Source: Flavihumibacter solisilvae (GTDB taxonomy: Bacteria > Bacteroidota > Bacteroidia > Chitinophagales > Chitinophagaceae). From it: a stretch of DNA of 64,000 nt. How positions within the stretch are numbered: position 1 is the first letter of the stretch; the number at the start of each line of letters is the position of its first letter. The position numbers and the translations under genes were made by a program. A model generated the notes under the pieces. That model had not been told where the DNA came from. It ran no database searches and saw only the letters and a list, made by a program, of their open reading frames with translations. This document shows positions 39,911 to 54,309 of the stretch, one piece after another. Location: assembly GCF_000814475.1 (NCBI RefSeq), contig NZ_JSVC01000015.1:1-64000 (forward strand). Reading direction: 5' to 3'.

Positions 39911-41440
39911 ATGAAGCAATTATCATTAAACCTTATCACCCTAGTATTAGTAACCGTTTTCAATGCCTGCAGCAAGGAAAAGATTGAAAAACCGCTGCCA
40001 CAACCCGGTCAACCCGTAAATAGTTCCTTCCGCATTGTGATTGATAACCTGCCAGCTGCTGGCCAGTCACACGAAGGATTATATGCAATCGCCACCGTAA
40101 CCAATGAACAGGAAGAAGCGGTAATGGCCGATCGAAAACTGCCTTTGACCTTGGATGGCAAGTACAGTTCAGCAGAACTGAAACTTCCGGCGGGTAAGTA
40201 TAAGCTGACGAAATTTGTTGTTTTTGGAAAAGACAATAAGGTGATGTTTGCCGCACCGCGATTGGGCTCCGACCAGGCTGCCGGTGTACAGAAGCCGTTA
40301 TCGGCTGCTTTTTCCCTGCCGACTACAGAAGTGCTGGCGGTAAAAGTGGAAGTGCTTTTCGTAATTGCCGGAGAGCAGCCTTCTCATTACGGTTACCCGG
40401 CTGGTACTTTTAACGAACAGCCTGGAGGTCCCGCACCTGACAACAATCCCAATTTCAGGATTAAACTTAAAACAGTAATCTCCAATGGGAATGTAGTATA
40501 CGATAGCATTGCCTCGCTTTTAAAAATAACTACCTGGGACGAACGAAATGAATGGTCAAGCCGTGAACTGCAGCTTGAACCGGGTACCAATGATATAATC
40601 CTGCCGAAATCAGCTTTGAAGTTCAAATTCCAGGTTTGGAAATGGGGACACACCGACGAAATGACCCTGCTCCGCCAGGACCTTGATTCCAATACCGTTT
40701 ATACTATCGGTGGTCGCCGTGCTGCAAAAAGGCTGAAATCTGAATTGGTATATACACTCGTATCAGGCGCCTACAAGGCCGAAAGTAAAAATGAATTCAT
40801 CTACGGGCCAAACGGAAAGCTGAATAAGATCATTTACCGCTTGAAAAGAAAGGACGGAACTCCTTACATTGCCAATACCGAAGATTTCAATTATTCTGGT
40901 GACCGGGTGGAGTCAACTGTAAAGTCCGACGAATTTGGCAACTTCATCAGCTTTACTACGTTCCAGTATGATGCCCAGGGTAAATTGGTTGACATCAGGC
41001 AAACTGACAATAGCACAGGGGCAACCAGGGCTGCAGTAAGTTATCAGGCTTTGGACGGTTCATTTATGATACAGGCCAGGTATGGCTTTAGTACCGGTAT
41101 GATGTTGAACAGCAACATGACTATGACCGGAGGCAATATGGTAAAATTGGAAGCCGCAACGGCAAATGGGAACAGCGAAACTGGTCTTTACCAGTACGAT
41201 TTTAACATCAACCCTTATGCTAATATGGGCTGGCCGGACCTGATGTTCAGCCGGAATTCCAAAAATAATCTTACCGGTCAGCAGAAAACTTATCATGGCA
41301 GTTTTCCTACAGCAGATCCGTACAGTTTTGAATACAAATATGATGATTTCGGCTACCCGCTTGAGCTTATTAAAAGCTTTAAGTCGCCCACCACAGGCCA
41401 GCACCTGTTTACCACGAAAACAGTTTACAACTATTATTGA
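39911..41440 (+). CDS. two-domain lipoprotein with YD-like C-terminal repeats
   Basis: 509 residues. Lipobox FNAC at Cys20. Residues 37-275 form a beta-sandwich-like part (RIVIDNLPAAGQSHEGLYAIATVTNEQEEAV, ELKLPAGKYKLTKFVVFGKDNKVMFAAPR), reminiscent of surface adhesin/DUF4784-type domains but not identified. Residues 285-505 have YD-like units (NEFIYGPNGKLNKIIYRLKRKDG, TTFQYDAQGKLVDIRQTD, FEYKYDDFGYPLELIKSF). Probably a surface lipoprotein; role unknown. A strong terminator follows. Confidence 0.75.
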   Translation: MKQLSLNLITLVLVTVFNACSKEKIEKPLPQPGQPVNSSFRIVIDNLPAAGQSHEGLYAIATVTNEQEEAVMADRKLPLTLDGKYSSAELKLPAGKYKLTKFVVFGKDNKVMFAAPRLGSDQAAGVQKPLSAAFSLPTTEVLAVKVEVLFVIAGEQPSHYGYPAGTFNEQPGGPAPDNNPNFRIKLKTVISNGNVVYDSIASLLKITTWDERNEWSSRELQLEPGTNDIILPKSALKFKFQVWKWGHTDEMTLLRQDLDSNTVYTIGGRRAAKRLKSELVYTLVSGAYKAESKNEFIYGPNGKLNKIIYRLKRKDGTPYIANTEDFNYSGDRVESTVKSDEFGNFISFTTFQYDAQGKLVDIRQTDNSTGATRAAVSYQALDGSFMIQARYGFSTGMMLNSNMTMTGGNMVKLEAATANGNSETGLYQYDFNINPYANMGWPDLMFSRNSKNNLTGQQKTYHGSFPTADPYSFEYKYDDFGYPLELIKSFKSPTTGQHLFTTKTVYNYY

Positions 41441-41457
41441 TTCCTGTATTATGGACA

Positions 41458-41492
41458 GCCCGCTGAACTATTTGTTTTGCGGGCTTTTTTTT
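41458..41492 (+). terminator. intrinsic terminator before the Crp/Fnr gene
   Basis: GCCCGC (41458-41463) pairs with GCGGGC (41479-41484) around a 15-nt loop and is followed by nine T. It ends only 18 bp before the ATG at 41510, so the regulator must start its transcript inside or just after this hairpin, or be expressed by read-through. Confidence 0.85.
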
Positions 41493-41509
41493 TGGAAATT
41501 GGTTGCCGG

Positions 41510-42097
41510 ATGTCAGAAAACCTGTACAATCATATAGCTAAATTCATCCCGCTTGTCCGCGAAGATTTCGCCGAAATTATGCTGTTCTTTGACAGCCAGT
41601 CGGTAAAGAAGAAGCAAAACCTTGTAGAGGAGGGGAATGTCTGCCGGGCCAATTATTTTGTAGAGAAGGGCTGCCTGCGCATGTTTTTCCTGGATGTTGA
41701 CGGAACAGAGCAGACCATCCAGTTCGCCATTGAGAATTGGTGGATGACGGATATCGAAGCATTCAATAAAGGGAAAAAAGCTGCCTTTTCGATCCAGGCT
41801 GTGGAAAACACGGAAGTGCTCGCGATCACCAAATATGAAATGGAAAGAATGCTTGGTACCTATCCTTTGATGGAAAGCTATTTCCGGCAGGTTTATGAAA
41901 GGGCTTATGCCGCTTCGCTGTTCCGTGTAAAGTATATCATGCGGTTGTCCAAGGAAGAGATTTATGACCATTTCTCTGGTAACTTTCCTGAATTTGTACA
42001 ACGGATCCCGCAGAAGGTCCTGGCCTCTTTCCTGGGTATAACTCCAGAGTACCTGAGTGAGATCAGGAAGAAACGGATGACCAGGAAAACGAAATAG
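41510..42097 (+). CDS. Crp/Fnr-family transcription regulator
   Basis: 195 residues from the ATG at 41510 (a TTG at 41477 lies in the terminator). Beta-roll domain: KKKQNLVEEGNVCRANYFVEKGCLRMFFLDVDGTEQTIQFAIENWWMTD; C-terminal HTH: RIPQKVLASFLGITPEYLSEIRKK. It is of the same type as the regulator at 12299. It lies just before the AhpD-like gene and is a candidate controller of the CTTAA-N6-TTAAG cassette. Confidence 0.92.
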   Translation: MSENLYNHIAKFIPLVREDFAEIMLFFDSQSVKKKQNLVEEGNVCRANYFVEKGCLRMFFLDVDGTEQTIQFAIENWWMTDIEAFNKGKKAAFSIQAVENTEVLAITKYEMERMLGTYPLMESYFRQVYERAYAASLFRVKYIMRLSKEEIYDHFSGNFPEFVQRIPQKVLASFLGITPEYLSEIRKKRMTRKTK

Positions 42098-42101
42098 CTC
42101 C

Positions 42102-42156
42102 TTTCTTAAACCAGCTTAAGTTTTTTGCGTGGCATAATTTCCAAATTTGTGTTGTC
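42102..42156 (+). promoter_or_regulatory. operator-promoter cassette, copy 2
   Basis: Contains the perfect palindrome CTTAA-ACCAGC-TTAAG (42105-42120), a T run, and CAAATTTG (42142-42149) at exactly the same distance as in copy 1 (37 bp from the operator start). It drives the gene at 42190. Confidence 0.65.
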
Positions 42157-42189
42157 AATAAACAATCAAATTTATAAAGTCACACAACA

Positions 42190-42633
42190 ATGGAAAACAG
42201 AGTTAATATTCAAAATGCACAACCTGCAGCATATAAAGCAATGTATGGATTGGAAGCTTTCCTGGCTGGTACTGAACTGACCAAAACACAAAAAGAATTA
42301 ATTAAGATCAGGGCGTCCCAGATCAATGGATGTGCATTCTGTATAGATATGCATACCAAGGATGCCTTGAAATATGGCGAAAGCGCCCAACGGATATTCC
42401 TGTTGAATGCCTGGCGCGAAACTGACCTGTTTACTGAAGAAGAAAAAGTTATTCTTGCGATAACTGAAGAAGTTACGCTTATTCATCAGAATGGCTTAAC
42501 TGCAGCCACCTATGAAAAGGCAAAGAGATTTTTCAGTGAAGATGTAATTGCCCAGCTTATTGTAGCTGTAGTGACCATTAATGCCTGGAACAGGATAGCA
42601 ATCAGCACAAATTTACCTGTTCCAAAAGGATAA
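42190..42633 (+). CDS. carboxymuconolactone decarboxylase / AhpD-like protein
   Basis: 147 residues, cytoplasmic. AhpD core with the redox pair Cys48/Cys51 and His55 in INGCAFCIDMHTKDAL. Such proteins are alkylhydroperoxidase-type reductases or related decarboxylases; the CxxCxxxH site favours peroxidase/thiol chemistry. It sits between Crp/Fnr and TetR regulators and an epoxide hydrolase, and shares its promoter with the LytTR gene. A strong terminator follows. Confidence 0.92.
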   Translation: MENRVNIQNAQPAAYKAMYGLEAFLAGTELTKTQKELIKIRASQINGCAFCIDMHTKDALKYGESAQRIFLLNAWRETDLFTEEEKVILAITEEVTLIHQNGLTAATYEKAKRFFSEDVIAQLIVAVVTINAWNRIAISTNLPVPKG

Positions 42634-42656
42634 TGGAATTTGCAGGTATATGCACA

Positions 42657-42686
42657 CCCGCAGAACAATTGTTCTGCGGGTTTTTT
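42657..42686 (+). terminator. intrinsic terminator after the AhpD-like gene
   Basis: CCCGCAGAAC (42657-42666) pairs perfectly with GTTCTGCGGG (42671-42680) around AATT, followed by six T. Confidence 0.93.
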
Positions 42687-42725
42687 GTCAGTTGGGCTTT
42701 AACAGATTTTTTTGTTGGGTTATTT

Positions 42726-42739
42726 GGAATGTACGTTCC
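42726..42739. promoter_or_regulatory. palindromic TetR-type operator (GGAATGTACGTTCC)
   Basis: GGAA-tGTACg-TTCC is symmetric except for one position pair. It lies 61 bp before the TetR gene at 42801 and fits the size and symmetry of AcrR/TetR operators, so autoregulation is likely. Confidence 0.55.
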
Positions 42740-42800
42740 TTATATTCTAAATTTGATGGCTGGGGATACCTGTTAACTTCAAAATCTATAATTTTATATT

Positions 42801-43385
42801 ATGCCGAAGGAAGTAATGTTTGATGAAGAAACGGCGTTGCAAAAAGCTAAGGAGTTATTCTGGCGAAAAGGTTATAACGGGACATCCATGGATGAACTGA
42901 CAAAGGCCATGGGTCTGAGCCGTTCAAGCATATACAATACCTTCGGGGACAAGCAAAGTTTATTTATCCAAAGCCTGAACCACTACAAAAAAAGTCAACA
43001 CGATAAGTTGATGCAGTCGCTGGTAAAATATGATTCGCCCTTGAAAAAACTACAGGCAATCTTCCGGGTATCAATAGATGAACTTATTAAAGATACGGAC
43101 CGCAAAGGGTGTCTTATCGTAAACACGACGACTGAGCTGGCGAATCTGGAAAATAATATTTCCGTGTTTGCAAAAGGGAATTTGGAAGATCATGAAAAGT
43201 TTCTACAGGACCTGGTAAAAAAGGGACAGCAATCAGGTGAGATCAATAAATCAATTCCGTCACTCGCCCTGGCAAGGCATTTGTTTAATAGCCTTATTGG
43301 ATTAAAAGTAATGGCTCAAACTACGGGTGACAAGAAGACATTGGATGATATAGCCAAAGTCAGCCTTTCGGTGTTGCAGAATTAA
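42801..43385 (+). CDS. TetR-family regulator
   Basis: 194 residues. HTH: ALQKAKELFWRKGYNGTSMDELTKAMGLSRSSIYNTFGDKQSLF, and the C-terminal domain contains the frequent GCLIVNTTTELAN motif of the AcrR subfamily. Probably controls itself and perhaps the epoxide hydrolase gene that follows after 211 bp. Confidence 0.93.
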   Translation: MPKEVMFDEETALQKAKELFWRKGYNGTSMDELTKAMGLSRSSIYNTFGDKQSLFIQSLNHYKKSQHDKLMQSLVKYDSPLKKLQAIFRVSIDELIKDTDRKGCLIVNTTTELANLENNISVFAKGNLEDHEKFLQDLVKKGQQSGEINKSIPSLALARHLFNSLIGLKVMAQTTGDKKTLDDIAKVSLSVLQN

Positions 43386-43596
43386 AGTCAGTATACCGCC
43401 TATATCGTTTTCCGGTTTCAGCAATCCGCAAACCCGCACGCATCCTTTCGTGCCCACGGGAAAGCGCTTACAAATCAATGCTGGTTGAGCAATGAATTAA
43501 GTCCGTCTATCCAGGCCGGTTTCCCCACCGACTGGGACAGGAATGTCTTTCGATATGTCAAGCGTTCACATTCATTAATCACTTAAATTTTGAAAA
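43386..43596. other. 211-bp gap between TetR and epoxide hydrolase genes
   Basis: No gene or clear promoter was found. An AAGCGCTT palindrome lies at about 43462-43469. On the minus strand short protein-like stretches are broken by stops and match nothing I recognise. Confidence 0.3.
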
Positions 43597-44805
43597 ATGA
43601 AACAGGCAGAAAGCACAGCCGCTCCTGCAACGGGAGCAGACATCAGGCCATTTAAAGTGAATTTTTCCCAGGCCGAACTTGACGATTTGAAACGCCGTAT
43701 CCTTGCAACAAAATTCCCGGAGAAAGAAGCAGTTAATGATTTTACTCAGGGAGTTCCACTGGCAACAATAAAAGAGCTTGCACGCTATTGGGCTTTTGAC
43801 TATGATTGGCGGAAAGTGGAGGCAAAACTTAATTCGTATCCCCAGTTCATAACAGAAATTGACGGCCTGGATATTCATTTTATCCATGTTAAGTCACAAC
43901 ATGCAAATGCAGCTCCGCTCATTATTAACCATGGCTGGCCGGGTTCCATCATCGAGCAGCTGAAGATCATTGATCCGCTGGTCAATCCCACCGCGTATGG
44001 TGGCACTGAGGCAGATGCGTACCATGTTGTAATTCCATCCATGCCCGGTTATGGATTTTCCGGGAAACCTACCAGCACGGGCTGGGGGCCTGAGCGCATT
44101 GCCAGGGCCTGGGTAACTCTCATGAACAGGCTGGGATATGAAAAATTCTTTGTTCAGGGTGGAGACTGGGGGGCAATAATTGTCGATATTTTGGCGGCGC
44201 AATCGCCCGACAATGTGCTGGGATTGCATACCAATATGGCAAACGCGGTTCCGGCTGAACTCGACAGTGCAGCCGCTGCCGGCAAGCCTGCACCTGCCGG
44301 ACTTTCAGCAGAAGAAAAAGCAGCTTACGAACAACTTAGCTTTTTCTACAAACATGTGTATTATGCATATTATATGGGTACGCGTCCGCAGACATTGGTG
44401 GGACTAACCGATTCTCCTGTCGGACTGGCAGCATTCATGATAGATCATGATCCATGGAGCCTCGAGTTGATTGCCCGTTCCTTCTCCGGTGTAAACGAAG
44501 GACTAACGCGCGATGATGTGCTGGATAATGTCACATTATTCTGGCTGACCAATACAGGAGTTTCTGCCTCACGGTTGTATTGGGAGAATAAAAACCCATT
44601 CTTTCCTCCTAAGGGAGTTAAAGTGCCTGTGGCAGTGAGCGCATTCCCGGATGAGCTTTGCCCGATGCCGAAGAGCTGGGCTGAAAAAGCATATCCCAAG
44701 CTGGTTTATTACAAAAAGCGCGACAAAGGCGGTCACTTTGCAGCATGGGAACAACCTAAAAGCATCGTAGAGGATATCCGGGCAGGTTTTAAATCGTTAC
44801 GCTGA
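43597..44805 (+). CDS. cytoplasmic epoxide hydrolase, EHN type (paralogue)
   Basis: 402 residues with no signal peptide, unlike the paralogue at 13042. EHN domain RPFKVNFSQAELDDLKRRILATKFPEKEAV, oxyanion motif HGWPGS, nucleophile Asp190 in GGDWGA, cap region YKHVYYAYYMGTRPQTLVGLTDSPVGLAAFM, and catalytic His380 in GGHFAAWE. The two proteins align block by block over the whole mature length and both end AGFKSLR/AAFKSLR. Predicted to detoxify epoxides inside the cell. An inverted repeat at 44829-44858 follows. Confidence 0.93.
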   Translation: MKQAESTAAPATGADIRPFKVNFSQAELDDLKRRILATKFPEKEAVNDFTQGVPLATIKELARYWAFDYDWRKVEAKLNSYPQFITEIDGLDIHFIHVKSQHANAAPLIINHGWPGSIIEQLKIIDPLVNPTAYGGTEADAYHVVIPSMPGYGFSGKPTSTGWGPERIARAWVTLMNRLGYEKFFVQGGDWGAIIVDILAAQSPDNVLGLHTNMANAVPAELDSAAAAGKPAPAGLSAEEKAAYEQLSFFYKHVYYAYYMGTRPQTLVGLTDSPVGLAAFMIDHDPWSLELIARSFSGVNEGLTRDDVLDNVTLFWLTNTGVSASRLYWENKNPFFPPKGVKVPVAVSAFPDELCPMPKSWAEKAYPKLVYYKKRDKGGHFAAWEQPKSIVEDIRAGFKSLR

Positions 44806-44828
44806 TTATCGCTGATATTTGAATGACA

Positions 44829-44858
44829 ATGGGACGTGATGAAAATGTCACGTCCCAT
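44829..44858. terminator. perfect 11-bp inverted repeat after the epoxide hydrolase gene
   Basis: ATGGGACGTGA (44829-44839) pairs perfectly with TCACGTCCCAT (44848-44858) around an 8-nt loop. There is no T run, so it may be a weak terminator or mRNA 3'-end stabiliser. Confidence 0.6.
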
Positions 44859-44919
44859 CCGATGAGTTGCGTGCCGTGTGAGAGCATATCACGACCATAG
44901 ACACCTTGTCCCGCTTTAA

Positions 44920-45050
44920 TTATTTACCAGTATATCTACAGCCAGGTTTTACCTGGAGCATGGCCTCGTCGCAGGCAACAATAATGAAGTTATACCGTTT
45001 GCGACAAATTGCTTAGCCAGTTCTAAACCAATTCCTGCCGGGCTGCCGGT
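44920..45050 (-). pseudogene. remnant of a short-chain dehydrogenase (frameshifted)
   Basis: Read on the minus strand from 45050 the sequence gives TGSPAGIGLELAKQFVANG, the nucleotide-binding start of an SDR (compare TGxSxGIGLELA). At about 44990-45000 the frame must shift by one to continue YNFIIVACDEAMLQVKPGC, the next SDR strand (normally YDLIIAAxDE), up to a stop at 44920. A TAA stands directly before the first residue. Only about 44 residues of a 250-residue enzyme remain, so this is a decayed fragment. Seen by eye only. Confidence 0.6.
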
Positions 45051-45141
45051 TTAACCGTCGGCTGATGCGACTGTGGAAATTGATCACCTATTCACCTGCC
45101 CACCGGTTTACCTATTGACATATTAACTTAAATTGCTTTCG

Positions 45142-47778
45142 ATGAAAATGTCAGAACCTCAGGGGCCGGAAACTGCTCCATCCGAAGTCAAAGCCGAAAG
45201 GGTAAGCAATATATTGCTCGACCTGGGCCACGACATCACGAGGGTGCGGGAAAAAAATGACCTGATCATCCTGTTTACCCGGCGGATAAAGAGCTTGTTT
45301 TATTTCTCACATGCAACTGTCAGCCTGATCAGTCCACAGGACGAAACATATGGTGCTTTCCTGCTGGATAATATTTATTCGCCTTTATTGAAGGATCACC
45401 GTTACCTTAAATTGGTCACTACTCAAAACACGTTGAACGAATCCTTTATGCAGGCGGTGCTTAGATCGGATGTCCCAATCTCCTTTCTGCTGGAAGATGT
45501 GATCGACCAACCGTTATGTCCGCCTTTCCTGCCTGTTTATTACGAAGTTGGCATCAGGGAAGTGTTGATGACTAAGCTGATGATAGAAGAAAAACCAATC
45601 GGCTTCTTTCATGTCTATACGGACAGGCCAGGCAGCTTTACGCCGGAATTCCGAAGTATAATCAAAGGCATCGCTCCGCAGCTTTCAAGTGCTATCTCCA
45701 ACATTCTTAAAAACGAAGAGCTTCTTAAAAAGGAGAAGGAAAAATCGTTTCTGTTGGATTTCAGCAGCGACATTGCGACCGTAAGAACAAGGGAGGAGCT
45801 GGCTGTTGCTGCAGGCGCAGCATTGAATAAATTGACTGCACTGCACGGTTATGCGATTTGCAGGATCAATCAGGATGGACAAACCATGAGCTCCTATATA
45901 TTAGATGCCGGTAGGTTTACGCCGGGCGATGAAAATGAACAGGATTTCCGTGACGCCAGCTTCCCGGTCAACGATGGCCTGCAGAATCGTGTACTCGATA
46001 GTCCGATTCCTTTACTGTTCAGTATTGACCGCGAGGTACAAAGAGGAATAACATCTGTTTACCTGCATTTCTTGAAAAGTAAAGGCTATAAAACAATGGC
46101 CGGTATCAGACTGCGGAACGGTGAAACAAACCTGGGCATTCTTTGGCTGGCAATTGAAGAAATTAACATCCGGTTGTTACAAGGCATTTGTGCACAAATC
46201 TCCACCGCCATGGCGAATATCATGGCTAATGAGGAAGTTGCAAAAAAACAACGGGACCTGGCTTTCCTGTTGGATTTCAGCAGAGATGTGGCGCATGTCA
46301 GAACGAAACCGGAACTTGAAGCTGCTATCTTCAGGGTATTCGATAAATTACTGCATACGAAGTTGTCACTAATACAAGTGATAGGAGAGGATAGCGTTAC
46401 CCTTTATCCATTCATGTATGACCAGGCACTGCGCAATGGATCAAATGAATATTTTGATGAAAAAGTTGTTGTGCCTGGCACAGTAAAGGAAAGCTATACG
46501 GCAAAAGTGCTTGCGAGTGAAGAGGGATTGGTATTTAATGTGGATGAAGAAGTAGCCAGCGGCAATGCCCGTGCGAAATTCTGGAAAGCGACGGGGTTGG
46601 GAAATATGTATAGTCTTCCATTGCGGGTTGGTGACAAAAATATTGGCACACTGTGGCTCCTTGCAAACAGTTTAAGTGAGTTGGTACTCCAGGGACTGGC
46701 GGCACAGATATCTATCGCCATTGCCAACATCCAGGCGAATGAAAAACTGTTTGCTTATAAGAAGCAGCTTGAAAATGAAAACCTTTACCTGAAAGAGCAG
46801 ATAGGGAAGATTTACAACTTCTCTGAGATCATTGGGAGTGGGCCACAGATGCAGGAAGTTTACAAGCTAATGTCGCTTGTGGCAGATTCGAATACCACGG
46901 TATTGGTACTTGGCGAAACCGGCACCGGGAAGGAATTGATAGCAAGGGCCATTCATAATGCGTCATCGAGGAAAGATAAACTTATGGTGAAAGTGAATTG
47001 TGCCGCATTACCAGCAAATCTCGTCGAAAGTGAACTGTTCGGACATGAACGGGGTGCGTTCACCGGGGCTTTCGATCGCCGGATAGGAAAATTTGAGCTC
47101 GCTAATCAAAGCACGCTTTTTCTTGATGAGATAGGTGAACTGCCATTGGAGGCGCAGGCAAAATTACTTCGGGTGATCCAGGAACGTGAAGTGGAAAGGG
47201 TGGGTGGCAAACAGACCATTAAAGTGGATGTCCGCCTGGTAGTGGCTACCAACCGCGACCTGGAAAACGAAGTAAAGGCAGGGCGATTTCGTGCAGACCT
47301 TTTTTTCCGCCTGAATGTATTTCCAATTAATCTGCCGCCACTGCGTGACAGGATCGACGATATTGAACCACTCGCAGAATATTTCGTAGCGAAATACAGT
47401 AAGAATGCTGGTCGCAGGGTCATGAAAATATCCCCACGGGTTTTCCAGCAACTGCGCAGCTATACATGGCCAGGAAACGTACGCGAACTGGAGCACCTGA
47501 TTGAGCGCAGCGTATTGCTTACTACCGAAAATACTTTGCAGGAAGTCTTCATTCCCCGTAAGCCGGCTACAGATCAGCAGGAAAACAATTTTATCATTTC
47601 CAACCGTTCCCTTGAGGAAGTTGAACGCGCTTACATTATTGAAGTGTTGAAACGATGTGCCGGTAAGATTTCGGGTACAGGTGGTGCTGCTGAGATCCTT
47701 AAAGTGCCAGGCAACACGCTGCATTCCAAAATGAAAAAACTTGGAATCACCAAGGCTGATTATTTTAGTAAATCGTAA
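45142..47778 (+). CDS. sigma-54-dependent activator with three GAF-like domains
   Basis: 878 residues from the ATG at 45142 (a TTG at 45133 is in frame). Three repeats of about 170 residues begin with [36 protein letters not shown] and [18 protein letters not shown] and each ends in [12 protein letters not shown]-like helices: tandem GAF sensor units. A coiled linker leads to the AAA+ domain: Walker A GETGTGKE (591-598), the sigma-54 contact loop GAFTGA (638-643), Walker [11 protein letters not shown], and arginine-finger region. A Fis-type HTH ends the protein ([23 protein letters not shown]). It activates sigma-54 promoters; a candidate lies just downstream at 47894. Confidence 0.95.
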
Positions 47779-47821
47779 TTTCCTTTCTCCTCTCCCCCGT
47801 ATTACGTGAATTCTTTCGTGC

Positions 47822-47841
47822 TTTCACTGAATAAAGTGAAA
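47822..47841. promoter_or_regulatory. candidate upstream activator site for the sigma-54 activator
   Basis: TTTCACT (47822-47828) and AGTGAAA (47835-47841) form a perfect palindrome with a 6-bp centre. Its midpoint is about 88 bp before the start point expected from the -24/-12 promoter, in the normal range for enhancer-type sites. Confidence 0.45.
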
Positions 47842-47893
47842 AAAAGTTCTACTCTTGAAAGCTAGTGGTTTGATTTTCATTCAATTAACTGTT

Positions 47894-47909
47894 TGGCATT
47901 TCGTTGGCC
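47894..47909 (+). promoter_or_regulatory. candidate sigma-54 (-24/-12) promoter
   Basis: TGGCATTTCGTTGGCC has GG at 47895-47896 and GC at 47907-47908, the required spacing of the TGGCAC-N5-TTGC consensus, with two mismatches outside the invariant GG and GC. It lies 40 bp before the ATG at 47948 and directly behind the gene of a sigma-54 activator. Confidence 0.6.
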
Positions 47910-47947
47910 TTATTAGTAGCGAATCACAAACACAAAAATGTCAAGTT

Positions 47948-48700
47948 ATGAAAATCGTAGTCATCGGGGGCACAGGCCTCATTGGAACAAAAGTAGTTGA
48001 TAAACTTCGCCAGCTGGGTCACCAGGTTATTGTCGGTTCACCTAGTACCGGGATCAATACGATTACGGGAGAGGGACTGGCAGAAGCCATGAAAGAAACA
48101 GACGTCGTTATAGACCTCGCAAATTCTCCGTCATTTGAAGACAATGCTGTAATGGAATTCTTTAAAACCGCTGGCAAAAATCTTCTGGCAGCAGAAGTGA
48201 ACGCAGGTGTCCGTCACCATATTGCGGTTTCCATCGTGGGAGTGGACCTGATAGACAGTGGCTACATGCGGGCCAAGATGATGCAGGAAAAACTGATCAG
48301 AGAATCTGGAGTATCGTACACCATTATTCGCAGTACCCAGTTCTTCGAATTTTTGGCGGGTATCGCGAGTTCCGGTGCGCAGGGTAATGAGACGCATGTA
48401 TCCGGTGCAAAATTCCAGCCCATTGCAGCAGAAGATGTTTCATCTTTTGTAACCCAGACTGCATTGTCCGAGCCAATTAACGGCCACTTTGAAATCGCCG
48501 GTCCTGATCGCAGTACCATGGCTGATTTTGTTGCCCGCTACCTGCATCTTACAAACGATCCACGCAAGGTTGTATCAGATGACAAGACTCCATATTTCGG
48601 TGCTGTACTTAAGGATTCAGAACTGGTGCCCCAGGGCCAGGCTAAAGTGGGGGCCATCTCCTTCGATAAATGGATGGAAAGCCAGCTTTCAAAAGCTTAA
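47948..48700 (+). CDS. NmrA-like NAD(P)-binding protein
   Basis: 250 residues from the ATG at 47948; the open frame reaches 47855 but would include the sigma-54 promoter. An atypical SDR/NmrA fold with N-terminal dinucleotide motif VVIGGTGLIGTKVV, strand VIDLANSPSFED, and HHIAVSIVGVD, YTIIRSTQFFEFLAGI. No YxxxK catalytic pair, as in NmrA-like redox sensors and SDR_a5 proteins. It may sense NAD(P) redox state or reduce a small quinone. Likely target of the sigma-54 activator upstream. Confidence 0.9.
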   Translation: MKIVVIGGTGLIGTKVVDKLRQLGHQVIVGSPSTGINTITGEGLAEAMKETDVVIDLANSPSFEDNAVMEFFKTAGKNLLAAEVNAGVRHHIAVSIVGVDLIDSGYMRAKMMQEKLIRESGVSYTIIRSTQFFEFLAGIASSGAQGNETHVSGAKFQPIAAEDVSSFVTQTALSEPINGHFEIAGPDRSTMADFVARYLHLTNDPRKVVSDDKTPYFGAVLKDSELVPQGQAKVGAISFDKWMESQLSKA

Positions 48701-49171
48701 CTGGTTGCCTGCTACCTGTTGAAACGAAGATGACAGGTGTCAGCTTGCCGAGGCGGTTGTAATGGGAGTGCACTTTCTACCTGTTCGTGCACGAGGACTT
48801 CCCTACGCCGGCGTACGGTCCTAACGAAAACCGGTCAACAACACGGCAACTCACCAGGAACCAGGCAATATCTGTCCAAAAAATGATCCCGTTTTTAAAA
48901 CCAATCATGATCAGCCCTTTTTTATTGTCTAACCCGCCTGTCAGCAAAGACCAGGATAAACGCCCGGATTCCCGGGTCGGCCAATCCGTCATTAAAGCAA
49001 ACAAAGGCAATGAATCACCCGGTAATGCTCCAGGCCCAACAGAAATCAAACCAGGCAGATTTGAGCAAAGTATTTCTGTCGGCAGCCCGGACAATTTGTT
49101 CTGATTGATTCACACGCTAAAAATCCAGCCCTTCCGAAAAGTTCTTCCGGTATAAAATTTAAACAAACTCA
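48701..49171. other. 471-bp region without a convincing gene
   Basis: Two 105-residue frames overlap on opposite strands (48777-49094 minus, 48787-49104 plus). The minus-strand one has two hydrophobic stretches, the plus-strand one is Pro/Lys-rich; neither resembles a known family. ACCTGT/ACAGGT (about 48714-48738) can form a small hairpin after the NmrA-like gene. The region may be a decayed gene. Confidence 0.4.
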
Positions 49172-49906
49172 ATGATGAGCACTTTTAAGAATGTAGTATT
49201 GGTACACGGCGCTTTCGCCGATGGCTCGAGCTGGTCCGATGTTATTCCCCTGCTCAGAGACAATGGATTTAATGTCATCGCTGTGCAAAATCCGCTCACC
49301 TCATTGGAAGATGATGTTGATGCGACAAATAGAGCTATTGAATCTATGGATGGACCTGTCCTGCTGGTTGGGCACTCTTATGCAGGTATGGTGATTACAG
49401 AAGCAGGCAACCATCCGAATGTGGCTGGTCTTCTCTATGTCTGTGCAATGGTTCCGGATGACGGACAGTCTGTCGGTGATGTGATTAAAGGATTTAATAC
49501 ACCGGCCGCTGCAGAATTCAGGCAGGACAAATTTGGATTCCTGACTCTTTCATCGAAAGGAATCCATGAGAATTTTGCCCAGGATCTGCCTCCAAGATCC
49601 CGGGAGATCTTGTATGCTGTTCAGGTTCCCTGGGCTTTAAAAGCTCTGTCAGGCACTATTAATAAAGCTGCCTGGAAAACCAGGCCTTCCTGGAGCCTAA
49701 TAGGTACCGATGACCAGACGCTTGGAACGGAATTACTCCGCGCAGGAGCGAACAAGATCAAGGCAACGACTCTTGAACTTAAATCCAGTCATGTTCCAAT
49801 GCTTTCAATGCCCGATAGGGTGGCTGCGTATATCGGCAGGATTTCCGAAGAATTGGAGAAATCCGCGGTTTCAAAAAAAGAAGTGGAAGAGTCAATTGGT
49901 CAATAA
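49172..49906 (+). CDS. alpha/beta hydrolase (esterase-like)
   Basis: 244 residues, cytoplasmic. Opens with VVLVHGAFADGSSW (oxyanion HG), nucleophile Ser69 in the elbow GHSYAG, a probable Asp in SLIGTDDQTLG and catalytic His in LKSSHVPMLSMPD. This compact type is common among Bacteroidota and Burkholderia stress loci; substrate unknown. Either of two adjacent ATGs (49172, 49175) can start it. A long hairpin follows. Confidence 0.92.
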   Translation: MMSTFKNVVLVHGAFADGSSWSDVIPLLRDNGFNVIAVQNPLTSLEDDVDATNRAIESMDGPVLLVGHSYAGMVITEAGNHPNVAGLLYVCAMVPDDGQSVGDVIKGFNTPAAAEFRQDKFGFLTLSSKGIHENFAQDLPPRSREILYAVQVPWALKALSGTINKAAWKTRPSWSLIGTDDQTLGTELLRAGANKIKATTLELKSSHVPMLSMPDRVAAYIGRISEELEKSAVSKKEVEESIGQ

Positions 49907-49922
49907 GAGGAAGTTAATAGTT

Positions 49923-49960
49923 GATAAACCCTTGCTGGTAATGTGCCGCAAGGGTTTATC
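49923..49960. terminator. hairpin between convergent hydrolase and adaptor genes
   Basis: GATAAACCCTTGC (49923-49935) pairs perfectly with GCAAGGGTTTATC (49948-49960) around a 12-nt loop. Only short T stretches follow. Likely terminator for the plus-strand hydrolase and possibly the minus-strand efflux operon. Confidence 0.8.
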
Positions 49961-49990
49961 GTTTCTATCGCTGTTTAGCTGCAACAAGCT

Positions 49991-51112
49991 TTAGTCCATT
50001 TTAATTGCCTCCACGGCTGCCCCATTCCTTACTTCTTCACTGGCAAATTTTACGAGCGTATCATTTACGGAAAGATTGCCTGAGATCTCGGTCTTTCCTT
50101 CGAAAGCCCGCGTCGCAGACACGGGTATCCATATGGTCTTGTTATTTTGGATCCTGATCACAAATACACCTTCGGTAGAATTGAGTATTGCTGATGTCGG
50201 CACGACAAGTGACCGCTGTCCCTTGAGTAAAGGAATCCGGACTTCCGCTACCATTCCCGGCAGCAGCTTTTTTTCTGTATTGTCAACATCCATTTCAATT
50301 CTTTCTGCCCTCAGGCGATTATCGAGGGCACCTGCAAGTCGGGTGATTGTGGCTGTGAATGTGTCAGTTGGCAATGATCGAAATGTGAATGTCACTTTAC
50401 TATTGTTGCTAAGGTAACCGGAATATGCTTCAGGTACACTCACTACAAGCCTTAGCTTTTTTTGCTCTACCAGAGTAAAGATGGGAAACTCGGATCCACG
50501 GCCGGAGGGTCCGACATAAGCGCCTGCACTTACATTCCGGGAAGAAATGACCCCGCTAAATGGAGCGCGGATCTGCAGGTAATTCCTGTTGCTCACCACT
50601 TCATTATATTGAGCACGTGCAGCATTCAGCGAGGCTTCATCAGATTGTTGTCTTGCCAAAGCCAGTTCAAGATCGTTCGGTGAAATGGTACCTGGTGTTT
50701 TGCTGGTTTCCAGAAGGCGATTGTAGGTCGCCATGCTGCCTGTATGGATCGCTTCCTGCATCTTCAATCTCGAAGCTGCCGCCGATAGCTGCGAGTTGAT
50801 TTCGGGTGCTTCCAGTGTAGCGAGCAACTGACCGGCTTTCACTTCGCTTCCGACATCAGCGTAAAGTTTCGCAACGAAGCTGTTAACTTTTGCAAACAGG
50901 TCTACATGCTGGTATGCAGCGAGTTCACCAGGTATTTTGATTGATGTCGAAAGTGAATCTTCCTGCAGGCGGATGGCTGCAATTGAGGCAGGTCCTGCCG
51001 GGGCCACTGCGGCCTTTGCTTCATTATTAGCGTGCGAAGAATTGCAGGCCTGCAGTATCAGCAATGGCAAGCCGGCCAATAACAATCCGGATATGTGCGG
51101 TAAGTATTTCAT
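49991..51112 (-). CDS. RND efflux adaptor lipoprotein
   Basis: 373 residues. Lipobox LQAC with Cys23, so it is anchored by lipid rather than by a TM helix. Lipoyl halves (VNSFVAKLYADVGSEVKAGQLLATLEAPEI ... YLQIRAPFSGVISSRNVSAGAYVG), a helical hairpin between them, and barrel domain (KLRLVVSVPEAYSGYLSNNSKVTFTFRS). Links the RND pump encoded 29 bp upstream to its TolC partner. Last gene of the five-gene efflux operon. Confidence 0.95.
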   Translation of the reverse strand: MKYLPHISGLLLAGLPLLILQACNSSHANNEAKAAVAPAGPASIAAIRLQEDSLSTSIKIPGELAAYQHVDLFAKVNSFVAKLYADVGSEVKAGQLLATLEAPEINSQLSAAASRLKMQEAIHTGSMATYNRLLETSKTPGTISPNDLELALARQQSDEASLNAARAQYNEVVSNRNYLQIRAPFSGVISSRNVSAGAYVGPSGRGSEFPIFTLVEQKKLRLVVSVPEAYSGYLSNNSKVTFTFRSLPTDTFTATITRLAGALDNRLRAERIEMDVDNTEKKLLPGMVAEVRIPLLKGQRSLVVPTSAILNSTEGVFVIRIQNNKTIWIPVSATRAFEGKTEISGNLSVNDTLVKFASEEVRNGAAVEAIKMD

Positions 51113-51141
51113 AATATTCTATTAGCGGTTTATGGTTTCAG

Positions 51142-54100
51142 TTATATGCTTGATGGTATGTAATGAATGCTCTCTTCGTCTTCCGGATCCAGTGAAACGC
51201 TGGTTGTCGTTGCCTTCTGTTGTCCCCATGCGAAGGCCAGTGGCAAAACGAACAACGCGGCGAAGGTGGAAGCGACCAGTCCGCCTATTACAGCTCTTCC
51301 CAACGGCGAAGACTGGTCGCCCGCTTCGCCGATACCTAATGCCATGGGAATCATTCCTACCACCATGGCCACCGCAGTCATCACAATCGGGCGAAGCCTC
51401 AGTGACGCCGCTTCCCTTGCTGAAGAAATGGCATTGCCATTAATTTTTCTTAGCTGCTCTGCGTTGGTTATCAGCAGGACTGCATTGGATATGGATACAC
51501 CCACCGACATAATTATTCCCATATATGACTGCAGGTTCAGTGTAGATCCCCAGGCCAACAGCAGCGCAAGCGACCCGATCAGCACAGCTGGCACCGTCGC
51601 CAGGACTACACCGGATACCTTAAACGACTGGAAGTTCGCTGCAAGCATCAGGAAAATCACCACTATCGCAACGATCAATCCGCTCTGCAGACTGTTAAGT
51701 GTGTCCGTCAGGGTTGTGCTCATTCCGATCAGTTCAACGTTAAGTCCTCTCGGCAATTCGCCAAGACCGGCTTTAGCCTTGTCGACATCATTTATTGCTG
51801 TTGCAAGGTCTTCCTTATTGACATTGGCTGTAACCGTCAACATGGGGATGGACCCAAGGTTATCGATTTCACCATAGGCCAGTCCATCGCTGAACGTTGC
51901 CACATCACCCAGGTTCGGCCGTGAGCCATTCCTAAGGACGGGAATCTGGCTGATATCATCCTTGCTGGAAATTTTGTCTTCCGGCACCTGCACCTGAACC
52001 CCATAACTGTATCCGGCATTCTCATCTACCCAGATATTTTTTTCAGTATACCGCGATGAAGAAGTCGATGCGATCAATGACCTTGATACATCACTGATAT
52101 CCAGGCCGAGCTGCGCTGCCCTGGCACGATCGATATTAATATTGATCGCAGGGTAATGAATGGACTGACCGATCTGGACGTCCCTCAGATAAGGGATCTT
52201 TTTCATTTCAGTTACCATTTTCTGCGCATATTCTTCATTTAGTTTTTTATTCCTTCCTGAAAATCGGACCTCGATTGGTGTAGGTGATCCCTGGCTCAGG
52301 ATCTTGTCGGTCAGTTCAATTGGCTCGAACGACAGTTTCATTAAAGGGTTCAGTGCCGCTGCTTTTTTTCTTATTGAATCCTTCAGTTCATCGAGGTTAG
52401 TGCTGTAGTGTTCACTTAATGCAACCTGTACTACAGATTCATGTGGGCCGGCCATCCATAGATATATGGGACTGATGGAAAACAATTGCGGATGGTTGCC
52501 GACATATGCAGACGTGATCGAAATATTATCTTTCCCGATAAGATCTTTTACGGCGTCTATGAATTGGAGAGTTTGGGTTTCAGTCCGCTCGATACGTGTG
52601 CCATCGGGCAGGCGTAAGCGCACCTGGAATTGCTTGCCGTTTACTTTGGGAAGTACATCCCGGCCAATACTGTTTACGAGTAATGCAGCGAGTCCGCAGG
52701 CCAGCACAATATACCCGGCAACTATAGGTTTACGGTATGGCATCATCCTGTCTATGAACCGCAGGTAGCGTTGGCGGATCTTTTCAAACAAACCTTTTTT
52801 ATGCGCATTATGTTCTTCCAGTACCGCATGGTGTTTCCCCTTCATCAGCCAGTTGGATAGGATAGGAACGAAAGTCTGCGCCAGGAAATAAGATGTTATC
52901 ATGCTGAAGCCGATTGCGAGCGCCAGCGGCAGAAATAAAGAACCGGGGATGCCACCCATCGTGAATGCAGGTGCAAACACTGCAAGGATACACAGGAGGA
53001 TCAGCAGTTTGGGAAATGCGATCTCCTTACATGCATCCCAGATGGCGAGCGACTTAGGTTTTCCCATATCAAGATGCTGGTGAATATTCTCAATAGTGAC
53101 GGTGCTTTCATCAACAAGAATCCCAATAGCCAGGGCAAGTCCGCTCAGCGTCATGATATTGATTGTCTGGCCGAACAAGTTCAGGAACAGAACGGATGAG
53201 ATTACGGAAATAGGAATAGTCAGGATTACAATTATCGCTCCGCGCAGGTCGGCGAGGAAGAGCAATACCATCAACCCGGTAAGGATCGCACCGATAATTC
53301 CTTCGCTCAGCAGGCTCTTTACAGAGTTCATCACATAATCAGACTGGTCAAATTCATAACTAAGTTTCACGTCTTCGGGAAGTTGCGACTGGATTTTAGG
53401 AATGGATTTCTTTAAATTCTGCACAACTTCCCAGGTGGAGGCATCTGCATTTTTGGCAATACTCAGGTATACAGACCTTCTGCCATTAACGAGGCCATAC
53501 CCCGCCGTAATGTCTGCACCGTCTTCAATAGTCGCAACATCGCGGAGGTAAAGATTCTGAATTCCACCTTTGAATAATGGGATGTCGCCAAATTCCTTTA
53601 CCGTTTTGATCGTTGTATTGGCCGGAGTAATATAGTTCTTATCGCCTATCCTGACATTGCCCGATGGCGCTGTCTGGTTGTTGAGCCGGAGGGCTTCCAC
53701 CAACTGGTCGGGTGTGAGGTTATGCTGCCTGAGACGATCAGGATCCGCTTTTATAACAACAGTCCTGATGTTACCGCCCAGGGGAGGGGAAGCCACCAGT
53801 CCAGGTATACTCGTGAATGAGGATCTTACATATACATTTGCCAGGTCGAGCAATTCGTTATTGCTTCGCTTGTCGCTTCTTAATACGAGTTGTCCTACAG
53901 GTAATGTGGATGCATCGAACCTGATGATGAATGGTGGGTTGGAACCAGGTGGAAAAACCGACTGGATCCTGTTGGCAAAGGCCGATACTTCAGCTGCAGC
54001 CTGTGCCATATTGGTAGCGGGGTAAAAACTAAGCTTCATCAAAGTCAGGCCCTGGATATTCTTTGTTTCAATACTCTTCAGGCCGTTTACAAAGAGAAAT

Positions 54101-54309
54101 ACATTGATATAATTTTTCGCAAAGAACGCCTCCATCTGTGCCGGAGTGTAACCGCCAAATGGATGCGAAACATATATTACGGGAAGGTCGAGTTTGGGAA
54201 AGATATCGACCTTAATGGAATTCACGGCTTTGACGCCGAAGAAGAAAAGTCCGGCTACCAGTACCAGGATAGTAATTGGTTTCCGCAGTGCGAATCGAAT
54301 CAGGTTCAT
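51142..54309 (-). CDS. RND efflux pump permease
   Basis: 1055 residues with the usual twelve TM, two-repeat RND layout. In TM4 the sequence is GILVDESTVTIENI: the second Asp of the classic DD pair is Glu, as in a sub-branch of RND pumps common in Bacteroidota and Acidobacteria. The N-terminal MNLIRFALRKPITILVLVAGLFFFG and the HPFGGYTPAQMEAFF porter region also fit that branch. Substrate unknown. Preceded by TolC (16 bp) and followed by the adaptor. Confidence 0.95.
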   Translation of the reverse strand: MNLIRFALRKPITILVLVAGLFFFGVKAVNSIKVDIFPKLDLPVIYVSHPFGGYTPAQMEAFFAKNYINVFLFVNGLKSIETKNIQGLTLMKLSFYPATNMAQAAAEVSAFANRIQSVFPPGSNPPFIIRFDASTLPVGQLVLRSDKRSNNELLDLANVYVRSSFTSIPGLVASPPLGGNIRTVVIKADPDRLRQHNLTPDQLVEALRLNNQTAPSGNVRIGDKNYITPANTTIKTVKEFGDIPLFKGGIQNLYLRDVATIEDGADITAGYGLVNGRRSVYLSIAKNADASTWEVVQNLKKSIPKIQSQLPEDVKLSYEFDQSDYVMNSVKSLLSEGIIGAILTGLMVLLFLADLRGAIIVILTIPISVISSVLFLNLFGQTINIMTLSGLALAIGILVDESTVTIENIHQHLDMGKPKSLAIWDACKEIAFPKLLILLCILAVFAPAFTMGGIPGSLFLPLALAIGFSMITSYFLAQTFVPILSNWLMKGKHHAVLEEHNAHKKGLFEKIRQRYLRFIDRMMPYRKPIVAGYIVLACGLAALLVNSIGRDVLPKVNGKQFQVRLRLPDGTRIERTETQTLQFIDAVKDLIGKDNISITSAYVGNHPQLFSISPIYLWMAGPHESVVQVALSEHYSTNLDELKDSIRKKAAALNPLMKLSFEPIELTDKILSQGSPTPIEVRFSGRNKKLNEEYAQKMVTEMKKIPYLRDVQIGQSIHYPAININIDRARAAQLGLDISDVSRSLIASTSSSRYTEKNIWVDENAGYSYGVQVQVPEDKISSKDDISQIPVLRNGSRPNLGDVATFSDGLAYGEIDNLGSIPMLTVTANVNKEDLATAINDVDKAKAGLGELPRGLNVELIGMSTTLTDTLNSLQSGLIVAIVVIFLMLAANFQSFKVSGVVLATVPAVLIGSLALLLAWGSTLNLQSYMGIIMSVGVSISNAVLLITNAEQLRKINGNAISSAREAASLRLRPIVMTAVAMVVGMIPMALGIGEAGDQSSPLGRAVIGGLVASTFAALFVLPLAFAWGQQKATTTSVSLDPEDEESIHYIPSSI

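What the first reader, a model, noticed from the sequence alone, without database searches (positions are those of the whole stretch)
47822..47948. Self-contained sigma-54 circuit: activator gene, palindromic site, -24/-12 promoter, NmrA-like gene
The gene at 45142-47778 codes a GAFTGA-type sigma-54 activator with three tandem GAF units. Directly behind it lie a perfect TTTCACT/AGTGAAA palindrome and, 53 bp further, TGGCATTTCGTTGGCC with GG and GC at the invariant distance. The next gene is an NmrA-like NAD(P)-binding protein. A small-molecule-sensing activator that switches on one redox-sensor-like protein would be a compact regulatory module. The sequence of GG/GC and palindrome is seen directly; the link is inference.
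Basis: partly seen in the sequence, partly recalled or inferred. Interest (0 to 1): 0.7.

Follow-up and report, generated by a model that had tools for sequence, protein, structure and literature searches.

The report
Sigma-54 switch for redox-detox genes
A gene for a ligand-sensing transcription activator sits just before a conserved DNA switch (two binding sites and a sigma-54 promoter) that appears to turn on a redox enzyme gene; in relatives the same switch stands in front of other peroxide- and toxin-handling genes, so this looks like an undescribed stress regulon of the Bacteroidota rather than a one-gene circuit.

Summary
In detail: a GAFTGA activator with three GAF modules (45142-47778), a TTTCACT/AGTGAAA palindrome (47822-47841), TGGCATTTCGTTGGCC (47894-47909) and an NmrA-like gene (47948-48700). 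By consensus alone the promoter is unremarkable (282 matches at 3 mismatches, 308 expected). Comparison decides it: a nearly ungapped 121-bp block is conserved in 23 aligned regions (window, own paralogue, 21 others). With window and paralogue left out, the operator, a TTGA element and the promoter each rank first of about 128,000 window positions.

Two corrections. The palindrome is the second of two dyads 30 bp apart. The circuit is not self-contained: the block recurs in the own genome at a duplicated pair and before an esterase/hydrolase operon, and in relatives before peroxiredoxin-DsbA, bestrophin, AhpD-like, YCII and hydrolase genes. 16 of 16 Bacteroidota NmrA loci carry it, 0 of 64 others. 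The -24 GG and -13 G hold; the -12 C does not. The NmrA-like protein keeps a Ser-Tyr-Lys triad: enzyme likelier than sensor.

Best reading: an undescribed GAF-sensing sigma-54 regulon for electrophile/peroxide detoxification. Binding, transcription and ligand are untested.

The parts
45142..47778 (+). Sigma-54 activator (bEBP), 878 aa: three tandem GAF modules (about aa 14-190, 196-365, 371-535), AAA+ with GAFTGA, Fis-type HTH_8
   Evidence: Pfam PF00158 6e-72, AAA_lid_14, HTH_8; GAF modules by self-BLAST, AF2, Foldseek
47795..47808 (+). UAS1: degenerate dyad CCC-N8-GTG; commonest in relatives C(A/C)C-N8-GTG
   Evidence: alignments A1/A4; leave-out PWM rank 1 for the whole UAS block
47818..47820 (+). 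extra conserved GTG, 9 bp after UAS1 and 4 bp before the CAC of UAS2
   Evidence: A4, at least 90% conserved
47822..47841 (+). UAS2: TTTCACT-N6-AGTGAAA palindrome (core CAC-N8-GTG, 47825-47838), 30 bp centre to centre from UAS1
   Evidence: rank 1
47870..47888 (+). conserved TTGAnTnTCAnTnnTTTGAT-type element between UAS and promoter; candidate IHF/HU bend site
   Evidence: rank 1 of 127,962 in the leave-out PWM; strict IHF-like YAAN4TTGATW (consensus recalled) in 5 of 23 rows against a mean of 0.14, largest 2, in base shuffles
47894..47909 (+). -24/-12 element TGGCATTTCGTTGGCC
   Evidence: GG-24 and G-13 invariant in A4; 40/40 and 39/40 in non-redundant sites outside training, -12 base C16 T11 G8 A5
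47919..47921 (+). predicted transcript start (12 bp after C47908), leaving a 5' leader of about 28 nt
   Evidence: inference from -12 spacing
47948..48700 (+). NmrA-like atypical SDR, 250 aa, GGTGLIG cofactor motif, invariant S95/Y106/K110
   Evidence: PF13460 1.3e-11, PF05368 at cut-off; alignment A2; AF2 pLDDT 94.3; Foldseek SimC7, complex I subunit, UDP-galactose epimerases, QOR2
49172..49906 (+). alpha/beta hydrolase (Abhydrolase_6), likely functional partner; no R1 site of its own; read-through from the NmrA promoter untested
   Evidence: PF12697 2.8e-24; R1 on the window; paralogues lie downstream of the C75 and C5 sites of the own genome
43597..44805 (+). epoxide hydrolase (EHN), upstream neighbour whose paralogues also lie beside the C75 and C5 sites
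   Evidence: PF06441 9.8e-39

Best explanation
The window holds the anchor locus of a sigma-54 regulon. The three-GAF activator (no site of this type was found before its own gene) senses a small molecule or redox signal through its GAF modules, binds two CAC-N8-GTG-type dyads 30 bp (about three helical turns) apart, centred near -118 and -88, and reaches RpoN-polymerase waiting at the -24/-12 element by a DNA loop, perhaps helped by an IHF/HU-like bend at the TTGA element. This switches on the NmrA-like oxidoreductase next door and, in trans, further operons with the same operator-promoter block: an esterase and an alpha/beta hydrolase in this genome; peroxiredoxin-DsbA, AhpD-like, bestrophin, YCII and NDH-2-like genes in relatives. 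The likely job is clearing electrophiles, peroxides or their products. Shown here by sequence: anatomy, conservation, near-fixed spacing, duplication, recurrence before redox/detoxification genes, co-occurrence with the activator. Inferred: binding by this activator, sigma-54 dependence, IHF/HU role, stimulus, enzyme activities.
For: The pair lies within the fetched 1.5 kb in 25 of 32 loci examined. 120-122-bp block nearly ungapped in the 23 of those 25 regions aligned (L069, L070 left out as diverged); column identity 0.80 (UAS) and 0.82 (promoter) against 0.53 in the spacer and 0.42 in the leader. Leave-out PWM ranks. R1 in own genome: window 1.5e-22, C75 6.9e-18, C5 2.5e-11; the next, 7e-3, is the minus-strand reading of the window palindrome. 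R1 over 394 family genomes: 46 with E<=1e-4, 80 match rows. At E<=1e-7, 25 of 28 site genomes have the activator (E<=1e-180) against 10 of 366 without such a site (Fisher 2.4e-28; relatedness and training overlap not corrected). I annotated 27 sites outside the training set: by a simple ORF caller (ATG, 70 aa or more) 26 have a codirectional ORF within 500 bp or overlapping the site, and 23 have at least one gene of the recurring redox/hydrolase classes in the fetched stretch. 16 of 16 Bacteroidota NmrA loci have the block, 0 of 64 others at E<=1. rpoN present.
Against: No binding or transcript data. G137 and G341 carry the site without a three-GAF orthologue (only 653- and 672-aa activators, 56-58% over the AAA+ part); G349 (88% complete) has no match at E<=1e-100, so another activator may read the operator. 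10 genomes with a diverged activator (41-59% identical) lack a strong site. Named loci L083 and L100 have the block (L100 weakly, 2.3e-4) but no activator in the fetched 5 kb on either side. 4 of 27 annotated sites (L215, L225, L229, L230) show none of the named classes; L227 and L237 count only through their own hydrolase, which served as reference; L217 and L232 have a doubtful first ORF. 26 of the 80 R1 rows, weak or partial, were not examined. The -12 C is variable. The IHF idea rests on a partial motif. Ligand unknown.
Confidence: 0.78

Rival explanations
1. A strictly local circuit: the activator controls only the neighbouring NmrA-like gene, and sites elsewhere are by-products of duplication or gene shuffling that carried the promoter along.
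For: Most of the strongest sites lie between activator and NmrA; the own C75 site belongs to a duplicate of the whole pair.
Against: The C5 site of the own genome precedes an esterase operon with no activator in the 12 kb fetched; peroxiredoxin-DsbA genes follow the block in 7 of 27 annotated loci, one of them at E 6.6e-20.
Confidence: 0.1
2. The operator is read mainly by another regulator (a related sigma-54 activator or a repressor binding the CAC-N8-GTG dyads), and the adjacent three-GAF gene is a passenger.
For: G137, G341, L083 and L100 have sites without a detected three-GAF gene. TetR and cNMP-binding regulator genes lie near the window locus.
Against: Co-occurrence 25 of 28 against 10 of 366; two dyads 30 bp apart, with the better one 47-50 bp from the promoter block in 35 of 40 non-redundant sites, is enhancer geometry; activator and NmrA-like gene stay together in Mucilaginibacter, Flavobacterium, Chryseolinea and Dyadobacter.
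Confidence: 0.12
3. The -24/-12 match is a coincidence and the gene uses the primary sigma factor; only the operator is real.
For: The window's promoter is 3 mismatches from consensus, a level met about 300 times by chance; the -12 C is variable.
Against: The element is kept at nearly fixed distance in 23 of 23 aligned rows and ranks first in the leave-out scan; Flavobacterium (L088, L092, L095), Olivibacter (L099) and Chitinophaga pinensis (L100) show TGGCAC forms; no TAnnTTTG box overlaps it by eye.
Confidence: 0.03
4. A second sigma-54 (rpoN2 cluster) rather than the household RpoN serves these promoters.
For: 23 of 28 strong-site genomes have two or more rpoN matches, against 91 of 366 others (counts read by hand; relatedness not corrected); the -12 deviates from TTGCW.
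Against: Five strong-site genomes (G212, G354, G377, G379, G400) have one rpoN match only, including G379 with the best site of all.
Confidence: 0.08

Closest known systems
NtrC/NifA/FhlA/NorR-type sigma-54 activators with paired upstream sites and IHF-assisted looping (mechanism recalled)
   Same: GAFTGA AAA+ domain, Fis HTH, GAF input, dyads about 90-120 bp upstream, -24/-12 promoter
   Different: Three GAF modules (two or four in some orthologues); scores below the NCBIfam cut-offs for FhlA (419.8 against 830) and NorR (380.6 against 476); predicted targets are redox/detoxification genes; Bacteroidota
ECF41 sigma factors and their COE targets (PMC3426412, passages seen)
   Same: The same gene classes: carboxymuconolactone decarboxylase, oxidoreductase, NmrA/epimerase; regulator encoded beside its target
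   Different: ECF41 is an extracytoplasmic-function sigma factor with promoter TGTCACA..CGTC, reported to control a single target gene or operon; here a sigma-54 activator with several predicted targets
Sigma-54 regulon of Flavobacterium psychrophilum (PMC9723704, section 15 part 1 of 2 read)
   Same: Bacteroidota, one sigma-54, -24/-12 motif, three PF00158 proteins
   Different: The printed selection of targets is mainly chaperones, proteases, motility and exported proteins; no NmrA-like or peroxiredoxin gene in it (one thioredoxin-family gene)
Cross-phylum sigma-54 survey PMC12316311 (passages seen)
   Same: Predicts sigma-54 promoters in Bacteroidota
   Different: No occurrence of NmrA or Chitinophag- in the main text; peroxiredoxin noted for Proteobacteria in the passage seen
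NmrA / QOR2 / SimC7 / complex I NAD(P)-binding subunit (atypical and extended SDRs)
   Same: Rossmann fold, Foldseek E about 1e-11, NAD(P)-binding motif
   Different: 13-24% identity to the ten closest folds; Ser-Tyr-Lys triad kept; no assigned substrate

Membership tests
sigma-54 bacterial enhancer-binding protein | AAA+ sigma-54 interaction domain with Walker A and GAFTGA | tested here: met
   PF00158 6e-72; GETGTGKE and GAFTGA in sequence
sigma-54 bacterial enhancer-binding protein | C-terminal Fis-type HTH | tested here: met
   PF02954 over cut-off (27.4 against 22)
sigma-54 bacterial enhancer-binding protein | binds UAS and activates RpoN holoenzyme | not testable with these tools
   needs footprint and transcription assay
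FhlA or NorR | NCBIfam equivalog cut-off | tested here: not met
   419.8/830 and 380.6/476 bits
sigma-54 promoter | GG at -24 and GC at -12, 10 bp between | tested here: met
   met in the window; GG 40/40, G-13 39/40, but C-12 only 16/40 in non-redundant sites outside training
sigma-54 promoter | rpoN in the genome | tested here: met
   three in own genome; 383 of 394 family genomes
sigma-54 promoter | rpoN-dependent transcript start | not testable with these tools
   no transcript data
IHF-assisted sigma-54 promoter | IHF site between UAS and -24 | tested here: inconclusive
   conserved TTGA element; strict motif in 5 of 23 rows
NmrA (PF05368) regulatory protein | Pfam cut-off | tested here: inconclusive
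   27.0 bits against 27
NmrA (PF05368) regulatory protein | catalytic Tyr lost (recalled, not from a call) | tested here: not met
   Tyr106 and Lys110 invariant in 23 of 23
ECF41 system | ECF sigma factor beside the COE gene | tested here: not met
   the adjacent regulator is a bEBP

The most novel reading that the evidence does not exclude
A phylum-wide, undescribed sigma-54 stress regulon: in Bacteroidota a modular GAF-array activator (2, 3 or 4 GAF units over one fixed operator type) has taken over control of the COE-type redox/electrophile genes that ECF41 sigma factors run in other bacteria, and extends it to peroxiredoxin, DsbA-like, bestrophin and hydrolase operons. The number of GAF modules would set which signals are combined, while the operator stays fixed.
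Probability: 0.45. Interest if true: 0.65.

Novelty: new member of a known kind. Interest (0 to 1): 0.5.

Why it matters
Sigma-54 biology in Bacteroidota is thinly studied (my judgement; the searches listed one mapped regulon). This gives a concrete predicted regulon with operator, promoter, activator and targets, seen in Chitinophaga, Paraflavitalea and Longitalea and also in Chryseolinea, Mucilaginibacter, Sphingobacterium, Olivibacter, Flavobacterium and Dyadobacter, and it can be tested with one deletion and one footprint. Activators with two to four GAF modules above the same operator type are a natural series for asking how GAF arrays gate an AAA+ activator. It also gives these NmrA-like oxidoreductases a functional setting: they seem to be switched together with peroxide and electrophile enzymes.

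Tried and rejected
Consensus search for -24/-12 in the window: not informative. Whether the second sigma-54 is needed: rejected as general, since 5 of 28 strong-site genomes have one rpoN match. Autoregulation of the activator: no R1 match in 44806-45141 up to E 10. Single-dyad search in the own genome with one mismatch: 12 hits counting both strands against 2 in the reversed-pattern control; places beyond the R1 sites not claimed. Rfam on 47000-49300: one match, below the gathering score. Terminator scan of 47700-50100: 6 found, 2.5 expected; the only plus-strand one, 47740-47754, is inside the activator gene; no sigma-70-type match on the plus strand before 49172, but that consensus does not suit Bacteroidota. 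PADLOC: RtcR/PspF models match only the shared AAA+ part. Literature: 10 searches; in their listings, capped and seen as titles and abstract starts, I saw no paper on this activator-NmrA pair or regulon; the library holds open-licence papers only.

Rows left out: A1/A4 use 23 of 25 pair loci (L069, L070 dropped as diverged); A2 23 of 25 (L055, L058 dropped); A3 21 of 25 (L055, L058, L076, L078 dropped). The regexes fix the letters they search, so counts of those letters are not independent. One search scored only the two best candidates per genome. Of the 80 R1 rows, 22 are training sites, 2 belong to L069/L070, 3 are reverse readings, 27 were annotated (26 fetched plus own C5) and 26 weak or partial ones were not examined. 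Of the 43 sites, three named ones (L079, L082, L085) proved identical to training rows and were removed; all counts of independent sites now use the remaining 40. In one search, 21 of 80 loci failed my gene-calling and were dropped from the neighbour tally. PF00158 also rings in archaeal controls, so only the 14 strong of its 19 matches were taken as activators. The strict Ser-Tyr-Lys regex matched 15 of 16 Bacteroidota and 42 of 64 other named homologues (L099, the sixteenth, has Y-x-x-G-K).

Full report
What is in the window. The stretch 45142-48700 reads as the finder described. The activator is a full bacterial enhancer-binding protein: Pfam Sigma54_activat 6e-72, AAA lid, HTH_8. Its first 535 residues are three GAF modules: BLAST aligns each with the other two, AlphaFold draws three repeats (mean pLDDT 70.7, the AAA+ part poorly modelled), and Foldseek finds PDE5A, PDE6C and phytochrome structures. 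The next gene codes an atypical SDR, best as NAD_binding_10 and only at the cut-off for NmrA. Its model is confident (pLDDT 94.3) and resembles SimC7, a complex I subunit, UDP-galactose epimerases and QOR2. Ser95, Tyr106 and Lys110 are invariant in 23 of 23 orthologues aligned, which points to an enzyme.

Is the promoter more than chance? Not by consensus: 282 matches at up to 3 mismatches where 308 are expected. So I turned to relatives. The window lies in a 5.4-Mb genome of 75 contigs. Related activators were sought in 99 relatives (12 genomes, own included, at E<=1e-100) and in 394 family members (35, own included, at E<=1e-180). Of 32 loci examined, 25 have the NmrA-like gene within the fetched 1.5 kb downstream; of the other seven, G212 and G021 have it 2-3 kb on. 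The regulatory block of one family member, L061 (G308), is identical to that of a named locus, Paraflavitalea pollutisoli (L079), which NCBI places in Chitinophagaceae, so the window's family is probably that one.

The footprint. In 23 of the 25 intergenic regions aligned (the window and its own paralogue among them), a block of 120-122 bases stands out: C(A/C)C-N8-GTG, 9 bp, GTG, 4 bp, CAC-N8-GTG, then about 50 bp with a TTGAnTnTCAnTnnTTTGAT element, then TTGGCATNNNNTTGG. Column identity is 0.80 in the operator, 0.82 in the promoter, 0.68 around the TTGA element, 0.53 in the spacer, 0.42 in the leader and 0.30 before the operator; the last bases before the start codon are also conserved (0.83). 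With the window and its paralogue left out of the matrix, operator, TTGA element and promoter each rank first in the window, and the plain spacer ranks 527th. The finder's palindrome is thus the second of two dyads 30 bp apart, centred near -88 and -118 from the predicted start at 47919-47921.

Not self-contained. A model of the block (R1) finds three strong places in the own genome: the window, a duplicate pair on contig 75 (activator 69%, NmrA 79% identical) and contig 5, where it precedes an esterase and an Abhydrolase_6 gene (family by BLAST to the window's P0003) without an activator in the 12 kb fetched. Over 394 family genomes 46 have a match at E<=1e-4, in 80 rows (scored with stricter filters). 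I annotated 27 of these rows, those outside the training set and nearly full-length; 26 weak or partial rows were not examined. By a simple ORF caller 26 of the 27 have a codirectional ORF within 500 bp or overlapping (all but L215; the first ORF of L217 and L232 is doubtful). In 23 of 27 the fetched stretch holds at least one recurring class: peroxiredoxin with a DsbA-like protein (7), NmrA-like (9), esterase or alpha/beta hydrolase (10, one of them weak), a roughly 106-aa protein without Pfam match (9), bestrophin (5), YCII (4), AhpD-like CMD (2), NDH-2-like (1). Reference genes for several classes were taken from these same loci, and L227 and L237 count only through their own reference. Pfam identities of the references are; the hydrolase of L237 was named by eye. 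L215, L225, L229 and L230 show none of these classes.

Independent checks. Of 43 sites outside the training rows (27 above and 16 named), three named ones turned out identical to training rows. In the remaining 40, GG-24 is present in 40 and G-13 in 39; the -12 base is C 16, T 11, G 8, A 5; the dyad-to-promoter distance is 47-50 bp in 35, and 79-80 in 4 where the other dyad, 30 bp further off, scores best (best-scoring placements, so slightly favourable). Of 80 named loci holding an NmrA homologue, all 16 from Bacteroidota carry the block (E<=2.3e-4), and 0 of 64 others reach E<=1 (phylum assigned from the genus in the record titles, three genera looked up, the rest recalled). A regex for the -24/-12 alone finds it in 13 of the 16 and 0 of the 64. 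Fourteen of the 16 have an activator in the locus, L083 and L100 do not. In the non-Bacteroidota loci the neighbours look like cupin, CMD, LysR and a few ECF sigma genes (59 of 80 loci usable; names read from the sequences by eye).

Co-occurrence. At E<=1e-7, 25 of 28 site genomes have the activator, against 10 of 366 without a strong site. The three exceptions were searched again: G137 and G341 have only shorter relatives, G349 none at E<=1e-100. The activators without a strong site are diverged ones, 41-59% identical.

Which sigma-54. The own genome has three rpoN genes, two of them in clusters with a response-regulator activator and PAS histidine kinases. Two or more rpoN matches occur in 23 of 28 strong-site genomes and 91 of 366 others (counts read by hand), yet five strong-site genomes have a single one, so a second is not required.

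Modularity. Orthologues with 703-705 aa lack the middle GAF (L074, L075); those with 1068-1081 aa carry an extra GAF1-like unit (L069, L070). All four loci keep the operator type, though the L069 and L070 sites are weaker (1.3e-8 and 9.6e-10).

Comparison with the known. The mechanics are those of NtrC/NifA/FhlA/NorR-type activators (recalled); the protein is below the cut-off of each of the 25 NCBIfam models shown (26 matched). The target set matches the COE genes that ECF41 factors govern elsewhere, including NmrA-domain proteins (PMC3426412, passages). The mapped sigma-54 regulon of F. psychrophilum lists mainly chaperones, proteases, motility and exported proteins (PMC9723704, section 15 part 1). 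The 2025 cross-phylum survey has no mention of NmrA or Chitinophaga in its main text (PMC12316311, passages). No paper on this regulon was seen in the listings of ten searches of an open-licence library.

Verdict. This is a predicted sigma-54 redox/detoxification regulon with the window as its anchor. Kind: known; member: new as far as the searches go.

Noticed in passing
G000 C9 (L180:1626-7512) and C1 (L181:1345-7712): Two paralogous clusters: a second-type rpoN followed by a response-regulator sigma-54 activator and two PAS histidine kinases. Two or more rpoN matches occur in 114 of 394 family genomes (counted by hand; split genes in fragmented assemblies may inflate this).
   Followed up: partly
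L074, L075, L069, L070: Number of GAF modules in orthologous activators changes between two, three and four.
   Followed up: partly
L177:5769-6793 (G000 C5): The esterase behind the third site is read as two overlapping ORFs of 236 and 105 aa, so the gene is interrupted here or misread in the assembly.
   Followed up: no
L226 (G354 C1:623000-632000): The activator next to the NmrA site is in three separate ORFs, although the operator is kept.
   Followed up: no
L213:1668-1985, L231:4925-5245 and others: A protein of about 106 aa (MKNYxxLxDALxDLRxRGY...) without any Pfam match in the two copies tested recurs in 9 of 27 annotated loci.
   Followed up: partly
window 39911-44805 and 49991-54309: Neighbours: cNMP-binding regulator, AhpD-like CMD, TetR regulator, epoxide hydrolase, and a HlyD/RND efflux pair on the minus strand; the C75 paralogous locus also has a TetR-like ORF, two epoxide hydrolases and, by eye, an RND gene.
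   Followed up: partly
G347 and other g129 genomes: Several weak R1 matches cover only model positions of about 40-119 (spacer plus promoter), perhaps other sigma-54 promoters.
   Followed up: no
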